Assembly (NCBI GenBank): GCA_016794585.1
Contig: JAEUJM010000011.1
Span: forward strand, 1 to 64,000
Source of the DNA: Acidimicrobiales bacterium
Lineage (GTDB): Bacteria; Actinomycetota; Acidimicrobiia; Acidimicrobiales; DATDAH01
Length of the DNA: 64,000 nucleotides
Reading direction: 5' to 3'
Position numbers and translations under genes: made by a program. Under the pieces are notes generated by a model. It was not told where the DNA came from. It ran no database searches and was given only the letters and a program-made list of their open reading frames with translations. Position 1 is the stretch's first letter; the number at the start of each line of letters is the position of its first letter. Of the stretch, positions 41,909 to 51,436 are shown piece after piece.

Positions 41909-43156
41909 TCAGGCCCAGACGGGCCCACACCAGCCTCTCCCCATCAACGGGGCGGCGGGAGCCTCGATGGCGCCGACCGGGCGGCCGGTGAGGTGGGCCG
42001 TGATGGCCCGGGCGCCCATGCGTGCACCCCAGAGGTTCCCGGCGGCCGGCCCGAGCGTGAGCATGGCGGGGCGCCCGATCAGGTGCACGGAGGTGCCCGG
42101 CCACCGGAGGGTCTCGTCGAGCACGGGGAACCCGTCGCACACGGGGGTCGGGTGTGACTCGAGGAGGGGTGCGGTCAGTCGGTGGGCGCGGACATCGGAG
42201 TCGGTGCCCGTGGCCAGCCACACACGGTCGGCGTGCAGGACGGTCTCGTCGCCCAGCACGAGGTCGAGACCGATGCCGGCCCGCTGCGCACCGCAGATCC
42301 GAGCGGGTGCGCGCACGTCGACGGCACCGGCCGCCGAGAGCGAGCGGATCCGGTGCAACATCCAGGGGGGCATGCTGCCGCCGTTCCGTGCGGCCCGGCA
42401 CGCTGACAGTCGGGCTCGGGGATCGGCAATGGCGGTGAAGCCGTTCAGCTCGCGGGGCCCGAGCCACCCCGGGTCGGTGTCGAACATCGACGAGCGCAAG
42501 GGGCGGCGAGCCAGCAGGGTGACGTGGGCGCCCCGCCGGGCAGCTCCCACAGCGAGGTGGCCAGCGGTCAGGCCCCCGCCGACCACGACGACGTGCTCGG
42601 CGTCGAGGGACACATCTCGCAGGTCGACGTCGCCGGCGTGGTCGAGCGCCGACCCTGGAACCGGCAGGACGTCGAAGACCCAGTTGGGGAGTCGGCGCCG
42701 AGCTGGATTGACGGCCAGCACGACATGTCGGGCGCGGATGGTCGTCCCGTCCGTGAGCAGGGCGGTGACGTCCCCCTCGGTCACGCCGATGCGATGCACG
42801 GAGGTCGGGGTGACCGCTTCCTCCAGTCCCGCATCGCTGATGAGGTGGGCGCAGTGGGCGCGGAAGGCCGTCGCATCCGGGATGCCGTAGGGGCGCTCGA
42901 GGGAGACGCCCTCCTCGGCGCACCACCGGCTGAAGGTGCTGGCGTCGGGTCCGGGGTGGTGGACGGCAGGGGAGCGCAGATGGGCGATGTCCAACTGGGC
43001 GAACTGGCGATCCCAGCGCCCGAGCCAGCCGTCAGGGTCGACCACGGCCATCTGGTGCCGCAGTGAGGGGTCGGCTTCGACCAGGTGAAGTGCCGACGAG
43101 AGGCCGTGTGGCCCGGCGCCGACGATGAGAAGCTCGACCTCGGCGTCGATGCTCAC
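41909..43156 (-). CDS. FAD/NAD(P)-binding monooxygenase-like protein in a Fur-box operon
   Basis: 415 residues from GTG 43156, which overlaps the upstream stop as GTGA (GTG 43159 is one codon longer). FAD-binding GxGPHG motif is at the N-terminus (LLIVGAGPHGLSSALHLVEA). Then GWLGRWDRQFAQLDIAHLRS, a second nucleotide-binding GGGLTAGHLAVGAARRG at about residue 195, WLATGTDSDVRAHRL and C-terminal GNLWGARMGARAITAHLTGR. It resembles the lysine/ornithine N-hydroxylase-type FAD proteins, but a specific substrate is not clear. The metal-regulated promoter suggests a siderophore/metallophore or metal-stress role. Confidence 0.8.
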   Translation of the reverse strand: MSIDAEVELLIVGAGPHGLSSALHLVEADPSLRHQMAVVDPDGWLGRWDRQFAQLDIAHLRSPAVHHPGPDASTFSRWCAEEGVSLERPYGIPDATAFRAHCAHLISDAGLEEAVTPTSVHRIGVTEGDVTALLTDGTTIRARHVVLAVNPARRRLPNWVFDVLPVPGSALDHAGDVDLRDVSLDAEHVVVVGGGLTAGHLAVGAARRGAHVTLLARRPLRSSMFDTDPGWLGPRELNGFTAIADPRARLSACRAARNGGSMPPWMLHRIRSLSAAGAVDVRAPARICGAQRAGIGLDLVLGDETVLHADRVWLATGTDSDVRAHRLTAPLLESHPTPVCDGFPVLDETLRWPGTSVHLIGRPAMLTLGPAAGNLWGARMGARAITAHLTGRPVGAIEAPAAPLMGRGWCGPVWA

Positions 43157-43368
43157 CACGGTCGGAGCTGGCCGGCCTGGTGCACCAGGCCGGGGGGCAC
43201 GTGCACGTCGGGCGTGAGATTGGTGCCCGACGCCGGGTCCAGCCTGGCTCGCCGACCGTCGGCGAACGAGATCTCGACGGTGCCGTCGATGAGCAGGGTC
43301 AGGGTGTGCGAGATCCGCCCAGAACAGTCCAGGTGCTGCACCCGGTGCAGGTGCTGGTCAAGGTCCAC
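43153..43368 (-). CDS. Small protein of a Fur-box operon
   Basis: 71 residues from GTG 43368, with GGAGG 3 bases before it. Sequence features: HRVQHLDCSGRISHTLTLLI, then VEISFADGRRARLDPASGTN, then HVPPGLVHQAGQLRPW. His-rich ends and a beta-rich middle are seen; there is one cysteine. No family recognised. A Fur-like palindrome overlaps the predicted -10 (TATCAT, 43386-43381) immediately upstream. Its stop overlaps the FAD-protein start, so the two are co-translated. Confidence 0.6.
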   Translation of the reverse strand: MDLDQHLHRVQHLDCSGRISHTLTLLIDGTVEISFADGRRARLDPASGTNLTPDVHVPPGLVHQAGQLRPW

Positions 43369-43381
43369 AGATCCTCCGTCA

Positions 43382-43408
43382 TGATAGGAATGAGACTCAT
43401 TCCTATCA
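43382..43408 (-). promoter_or_regulatory. Fur-family-like box, perfect 27-bp palindrome
   Basis: Arms TGATAGGAATGAG and CTCATTCCTATCA (13 bp each) around a single A. The core AATGA-N3-TCATT is the same as in the classical Fur box. It overlaps the predicted -10 TATCAT and ends 13 bases before the ribosome site of the 71-residue gene, so it should act as a repressor site. Whether the regulator senses iron, zinc or manganese cannot be told; no fur-family gene is in the window. Confidence 0.8.
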
Positions 43409-51393: not shown

Positions 51394-51436
51394 CTCGAGG
51401 CAATAGCCCCCGGAAGCCGGGGGCTATTGCCTCGAG
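51394..51436. repeat. Perfect 20-bp stem hairpin between the two ABC genes
   Basis: 51394-51413 (starting CTCGAGGCAATAGCC) is the exact reverse complement of 51417-51436, with a 3-base loop AAG. It lies in the 97-base gap between two co-directional subunit genes of one heterodimer. It has no T-run on either side. It could stop or slow polymerase, stabilise mRNA ends or set the subunit ratio. Confidence 0.85.

What the first reader, a model, noticed from the sequence alone, without database searches (positions are those of the whole stretch)
43153..43408. Perfect 27-bp Fur-like box controlling a two-gene operon of unknown purpose
Seen: 13-bp arms around one base, core AATGA-N3-TCATT, overlapping the -10 TATCAT. 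Downstream are a 71-residue unrecognised protein and an FAD/NAD(P)-binding monooxygenase-like protein, overlapping by GTGA. Known: Fur, Zur and Mur boxes share this core and repress metal-acquisition genes. Inference: a metal-starvation operon, possibly for metallophore chemistry, with a new small component.
Basis: partly seen in the sequence, partly recalled or inferred. Interest (0 to 1): 0.65.

Follow-up and report, generated by a model that had tools for sequence, protein, structure and literature searches.

The report
Zinc-starvation operon with unusual flavoenzyme
A perfect DNA palindrome in an actinobacterium is almost certainly the switch (a Zur site) that turns on a two-gene zinc-starvation operon; it makes a widely conserved but uncharacterised flavin enzyme and a new small protein, so the metal is zinc rather than iron and the enzyme's job is an open question.

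Summary
In detail: TGATAGGAATGAG-A-CTCATTCCTATCA is a perfect 27-bp palindrome at 43382-43408, the only exact AATGA-N3-TCATT in the 5.49-Mb genome. The two genes are as described. The metal is most likely zinc and the regulator Zur. The best other match in 127 kb of this genome (20/27) lies just upstream of a znuACB-COG0523 operon. Relatives of the flavoprotein in Acidimicrobiia and cyanobacteria carry the box upstream (45 of 77 with at most 1 mismatch; 3% of control windows), next to COG0523 GTPases, Zur, ZnuABC, FolE/HemB or zinc-free ribosomal proteins. One is fused to a COG0523 GTPase. An orthologue on plasmid pAQ7 (39% identity) was reported derepressed in a cyanobacterial zur mutant and induced by TPEN. 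The enzyme's model matches N-hydroxylating monooxygenases (PvdA, SidA) over its full length, but signature residues differ and the host shows no convincing siderophore synthetase. The 71-residue protein founds a small undescribed family in Acidimicrobiia; 10 of 12 loci are zinc loci. So: Zur operon, well supported by inference; metallophore chemistry not supported; the enzyme's substrate and the small protein's role are unknown.

The parts
43382..43408 (.). Perfect 27-bp palindrome, proposed Zur operator, TGATAGGAATGAGACTCATTCCTATCA (core 43389-43401)
   Evidence: conserved upstream of relatives; 20/27 match upstream of the host's znuACB operon
43381..43386 (-). TATCAT, possible -10 element overlapping the operator (not proven)
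   Evidence: sequence only
43373..43377 (-). Shine-Dalgarno-like GGAGG, 4 nt before the GTG start
43153..43368 (-). 71-aa small protein, undescribed family (L-x-DC-x-G ... LxL..DGxV ...); predicted four beta strands and a C-terminal helix
41909..43156 (-). FAD/NAD(P)-binding protein (415 aa), N-hydroxylating-monooxygenase-like fold; start GTG overlaps the TGA of the small gene (GTGA, 43153-43156)

Best explanation
A Zur operator drives a two-gene zinc-starvation operon. When zinc is plentiful, Zn-loaded Zur (gene on contig C34, beside a second znu cluster) sits on the palindrome over the promoter and blocks transcription. When zinc falls, Zur leaves and the operon is expressed together with the host's znuACB-COG0523 operon. 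The second gene encodes a FAD- and probably NADPH-dependent enzyme with the fold of class B N-hydroxylating monooxygenases; it recurs in zinc loci of Actinomycetota, Cyanobacteriota, Bacillota and haloarchaea. It most likely oxygenates a small intracellular amine or amino acid in the zinc-sparing response, in partnership with COG0523 metallochaperones (my estimate: monooxygenase chemistry about 0.6, N-hydroxylation about 0.4, functional partnership with COG0523 about 0.6). The small protein is a clade-specific accessory, perhaps a partner or metal-handling subunit (about 0.4). Shown here by sequence: box, conservation, gene contexts, one fusion, predicted fold. Reported for an orthologue: Zur-dependent and TPEN-induced expression. 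Inferred: Zur binding in this host, the reaction, and the small protein's role.
For: Box unique and perfect. Host znuA box 20/27, the best other match in 127 kb, just upstream of znuA-znuC-znuB-COG0523-WD40. The host's three Fur-family proteins read as PerR-like (beside rubrerythrin), Nur-like (beside cbiMNQO) and Zur-like (beside znu). Box upstream of 8 of 12 Acidimicrobiia-class orthologues and of 45/77 (<=1 mismatch) or 68/77 (<=2) named loci, versus 3% and 17% of control windows. Neighbours COG0523, Zur, ZnuABC, bL31/bL33, FolE. FAD-COG0523 fusion, 833 aa (L124). pAQ7 orthologue at 39% over 397 aa with TGATAATAATTATCA upstream; the gene matching it by order, SYNPCC7002_G0132, is up in the zur mutant and with TPEN (PMC4628125). 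Haloarchaeal znu operons and a Bacillota zinc cluster hold relatives. Fold: PvdA Z 32.9, 365 aligned, 3.1 A; SidA Foldseek E 1.5e-20; profile match to NMOs prob. 98.9, E 1.1e-17; 31 of 39 members hit PF13434. Small protein: 10 of 12 loci with zinc genes or box; co-occurs with the FAD gene, p = 2e-4.
Against: No binding or expression data for this host. TPEN also starves cells of iron, as that paper itself notes. 9 of 77 loci lack a box. In one clade the enzyme sits beside a FeoB-like gene, so iron or another metal is possible there. The GxGPxN motif of N-hydroxylases is GAGPHG here. The fusion is a single MAG case. The small protein is missing from most genomes that have the enzyme.
Confidence: 0.85

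Rival explanations
1. The box is an iron Fur (or other Fur-family: Mur, PerR, Nur) operator and the operon answers iron or manganese, not zinc.
For: Fur-family boxes share the core. In G013, G042 and one family of the phylum the enzyme's gene lies by a FeoB-like gene; in L102 an exact box precedes that group.
Against: No host protein read as a canonical Fur: two of the three Fur-family genes lie in PerR-like and Nur-like contexts, the third by znu. The host's other good box precedes znuACB-COG0523. Most neighbourhoods are zinc loci. The orthologue follows zur in PCC 7002 (PMC4628125).
Confidence: 0.08
2. The enzyme makes a hydroxamate-type zincophore (metallophore) for secretion.
For: Predicted fold of siderophore N-hydroxylases. 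Zincophores under Zur exist (coelibactin, pseudopaline; reviewed in PMC6103462).
Against: No IucA/IucC synthetase in the host or 5 relatives, and no NRPS condensation domain above cut-off except in G043. No transporter or acyltransferase partner is conserved beside it. A fusion to an intracellular GTPase fits poorly.
Confidence: 0.12
3. The enzyme is a zinc-independent stand-in for a zinc enzyme, like the HemB-II and FolE-II paralogues it clusters with.
For: Clusters with folE in 12 of 80 loci and with hemB on pAQ7 and a Leptolyngbya plasmid, and with zinc-free ribosomal paralogues in Acidimicrobiia.
Against: No zinc enzyme with an equivalent flavin reaction is apparent; the COG0523 fusion suggests metal handling. 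It remains compatible with the data.
Confidence: 0.3
4. The enzyme is a thiol or disulfide reductase that keeps zinc ligands of COG0523 or other proteins reduced.
For: YpdA bacillithiol disulfide reductases are the next structural matches (Z about 28); weak YpdA and mycothione reductase family hits.
Against: N-hydroxylases match better and over more residues (Z 32.9, 365 aligned); no cysteine is invariant in the family alignment.
Confidence: 0.12

Closest known systems
Zur regulon of Synechococcus (Picosynechococcus) sp. PCC 7002, gene SYNPCC7002_G0132 (PMC4628125)
   Same: Orthologous flavoprotein (39% identity), Zur-type box upstream, reported repressed by Zur and induced by TPEN
   Different: Clusters with hemB-II and folE-II; no small-protein partner seen; called only 'FAD-dependent oxidoreductase'. 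The locus tag was matched by gene order
Cg0795/Cg0794 of the Corynebacterium glutamicum Zur regulon (PMC2823685)
   Same: A 'putative oxidoreductase' and a COG0523 GTPase, divergent, both under Zur sites overlapping the promoter
   Different: Homology of Cg0795 to this protein could not be tested here
Class B N-hydroxylating monooxygenases (PvdA, SidA, KtzI, DesB)
   Same: Full-length predicted fold, two dinucleotide-binding domains, D..W-ATG motif, PF13434 relatives
   Different: About 17% identity; GxGPxN is GAGPHG; own LRSPxVHHP signature; ATGY is ATG[TSF]; no hydroxamate pathway nearby
COG0523 zinc metallochaperones (ZigA/YciC type)
   Same: Shared regulon and neighbourhood; one fused protein
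   Different: In this host the COG0523 gene is elsewhere, in the znu operon

Membership tests
Zur-controlled operon | Palindromic AT-rich Fur-type operator overlapping the promoter | tested here: met
   the position over the promoter is inferred from the start codon 13 nt away
Zur-controlled operon | Same site upstream of znu/COG0523 genes in the same genome | tested here: met
   C18 znuACB-COG0523 operon, 20/27; weaker site in the second znu promoter
Zur-controlled operon | A Zur-like Fur-family protein in the genome | tested here: met
   C34 gene beside znuC/znuA/znuB; sequence searches alone do not tell Zur from Fur
Zur-controlled operon | Conservation of the site upstream of orthologues | tested here: met
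Zur-controlled operon | Zn-dependent binding and derepression without zinc in this host | not testable with these tools
   reported only for the PCC 7002 orthologue's expression (PMC4628125)
Class B N-hydroxylating monooxygenase | Overall fold with FAD and NADPH domains | tested here: met
Class B N-hydroxylating monooxygenase | GxGPxN FAD motif and ATGY motif | tested here: not met
   GAGPHG and ATGT
Class B N-hydroxylating monooxygenase | Ornithine/lysine-binding residues | tested here: inconclusive
   profile alignment too distant in the pocket; the FLKDL region is HLRSP here
Class B N-hydroxylating monooxygenase | N-hydroxylation activity | not testable with these tools
   needs enzyme assay
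Hydroxamate metallophore pathway | NRPS or NIS synthetase in the genome | tested here: not met
   no hit above cut-off in the host
Iron Fur-controlled operon | Canonical Fur in the host and the box at iron genes | tested here: inconclusive
   no Fur-like context among the three Fur-family genes; a FeoB-like neighbour in another clade

The most novel reading that the evidence does not exclude
An ancient, cross-domain branch of N-hydroxylase-like flavoenzymes is a standard part of the bacterial and archaeal zinc-starvation response. It works with COG0523 metallochaperones through a chemistry not known in zinc homeostasis, such as making an intracellular N-oxygenated zinc ligand or modifying a metal site. 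In Acidimicrobiia it has gained a dedicated small partner protein.
Probability: 0.3. Interest if true: 0.82.

Novelty: new variant of a known kind. Interest (0 to 1): 0.6.

Why it matters
COG0523 proteins are found in all kingdoms of life, and what else takes part in zinc allocation is still open. A flavoenzyme that repeatedly shares their promoter, their neighbourhood and once their polypeptide is a concrete candidate partner. It can be tested in a tractable cyanobacterium (PCC 7002), where its zinc response has already been measured but not explained.

Tried and rejected
Iron Fur, PerR, Nur or Mur as regulator: less likely from the host's Fur-family contexts, not excluded. Classical metallophore: no NRPS/NIS synthetase. 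The search for related loci with the single protein found nothing; the alignment worked. Naming the Fur-family proteins by nearest solved structure or NCBIfam did not separate Zur from Fur; genomic context did. The small protein has no Pfam family, no sequence relative in the PDB and no significant fold match (best E 0.57; not evidence of a new fold). It has no match in plasmids. Haloarchaeal 73-aa proteins in znu operons do not look like it. The Anabaena Zur regulon paper (Napolitano 2012) is not held. Homology to Cg0795 untested.

Full report
Observation. The palindrome TGATAGGAATGAG-A-CTCATTCCTATCA lies at 43382-43408 without a mismatch. In the 64-kb window only two perfect inverted repeats with arms of 13 or more and loops of 0-3 exist, against 0.03 expected in simulations. 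AATGA-N3-TCATT is found once in the whole 5.49-Mb genome. On the minus strand follow a 71-codon gene (43368-43153, GTG) and a flavoprotein gene (43156-41909, GTG in GTGA). The start of the small gene agrees with its relatives. The proposed -10 TATCAT exists, but no promoter was mapped.

Which metal. The host has three Fur-family genes: one beside rubrerythrin (PerR-like), one beside cobalt/nickel transport genes (Nur-like) and one beside znu genes (Zur-like). Nearest-structure and NCBIfam searches do not separate these subtypes, so the assignment rests on context and sequence reading. The second-best match to the box in the 127 kb of host sequence I scanned, 20 of 27, lies about 20 bp before znuA of a znuA-znuC-znuB-COG0523-WD40 operon; the next matches score 17 or lower. 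That operon holds the only strong COG0523 gene of the genome. A degenerate copy sits in the second znu promoter.

Conservation. Of 395 genomes of the class, 13 (host included) carry a full-length relative of the flavoprotein. Eight of the 12 others have the box, with at most one core mismatch, just upstream; three more follow directly behind a COG0523 gene. Among named genomes the closest relatives are in Acidimicrobiia and many cyanobacteria. Within 220 bp upstream, 45 of 77 have the core with at most one mismatch and 68 of 77 with at most two, versus 3% and 17% of windows drawn elsewhere in the same loci. These sequences are related, so the binomial p-values overstate the certainty; the spread over phyla matters more. 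Neighbours include COG0523 GTPases, Zur, ZnuABC, zinc-free bL31/bL33 paralogues, FolE and His-rich proteins. In one uncultured Acidimicrobiales MAG the flavoprotein and a COG0523 GTPase form one 833-aa reading frame.

Experimental support from a relative. On plasmid pAQ7 of PCC 7002 a gene 39% identical over 397 residues lies after hemB, folE and three small genes, preceded by TGATAATAATTATCA. By gene order it is SYNPCC7002_G0132, the 'FAD-dependent oxidoreductase' whose transcript rose in the zur deletion and sharply with TPEN (PMC4628125). The mapping of locus tag to record is my inference; TPEN also starves cells of iron. More distant relatives sit at the end of haloarchaeal zinc-transporter operons. 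In a Metabacillus zinc cluster with COG0523 and rpsN, the gene is preceded by AAATCGTAATAATTACGCTTT, close to the Bacillus Zur consensus as I know it.

The enzyme. The AlphaFold model (pLDDT 89.9) matches N-hydroxylating monooxygenases over its full length: PvdA Z 32.9 with 365 residues at 3.1 A, SsDesB 32.3, KtzI 31.6, SidA about 30. YpdA (28.3) and flavin monooxygenases (27.8) follow. Profile comparison with true N-hydroxylases gives 98.9% probability over 372 columns, and 31 of 39 members match PF13434, though the window protein itself does not. Signature residues differ (GAGPHG for GxGPxN, ATGT for ATGY), and the family has its own motif LRSPxVHHP. I therefore call it N-hydroxylase-like and do not file it as one. 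No NIS synthetase and no NRPS condensation domain above cut-off occurs in the host.

The small protein. Twelve members from 11 genomes share L-x-DC-x-G, LxL..DGxV and a VDP motif. The model shows four strands and a C-terminal helix (pLDDT 86) with no significant fold match. Ten of 12 loci lie beside a Zur-type box, COG0523, ZnuA, Zur or ribosomal paralogues. Its co-occurrence with the flavoprotein (4 genomes, 0.36 expected) has p = 2e-4. Function unknown; an accessory role in zinc handling is a guess.

Mechanism. Zur-Zn represses, zinc shortage derepresses: well supported by inference. The enzyme as a NADPH/O2-dependent oxygenase of a small amine acting with COG0523: plausible from fold, context and the fusion, unproven. 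Alternatives (zinc-free stand-in enzyme, metallophore, thiol reductase, iron control) are listed with tests.

Novelty. Zur operons and COG0523 partners are known, and one orthologue was already seen as a Zur target. I found no report, in the open-access library searched, of this flavoprotein family as a shared zinc-regulon member across phyla, of its N-hydroxylase fold, of the COG0523 fusion, or of the small protein family. Subscription papers were not searchable.

Noticed in passing
L102:9197-11967 and L101:199-2981 (G042, G013); L204, L205, L207: A FeoB-like permease with an odd GTPase part lies beside the flavoprotein gene and, in the first two, a second YpdA-like flavoprotein; an exact box (L102:11975) precedes the group. 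Possibly a metal importer under the same control.
   Followed up: partly
L092:149-4815 (G000 contig C18): The host's znuACB operon continues into COG0523 and a WD40 propeller gene; the same WD40-COG0523 pairing recurs in other loci (L096, L106, L137).
   Followed up: partly
L124:2980-5481: In-frame fusion of the flavoprotein to a COG0523 GTPase, 833 aa, in one MAG; no second example seen.
   Followed up: partly
L242:455-5269, L243:336-5645: Haloarchaeal plasmids carry a zinc ABC transporter operon with a 73-aa protein of unknown function and a distant relative of the flavoprotein.
   Followed up: partly
L098:4011-5261, L108:40-1308, L115:218-1450: What reads as iron-type alcohol dehydrogenase genes lie near zinc-regulon genes in several genomes, possibly replacing zinc alcohol dehydrogenase.
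   Followed up: no
L104:10535-10864, L107:10385-10690, L208:1046-1342, L215:948-1301: His-rich small proteins with repeated CGH-VEHxGHxDYLHDGHxHH stretches recur in these zinc loci, often with ArsR-type regulators.
   Followed up: no
window 51401-51429: The only other perfect inverted repeat of the window with arms of 13 (loop 3); not examined.
   Followed up: no
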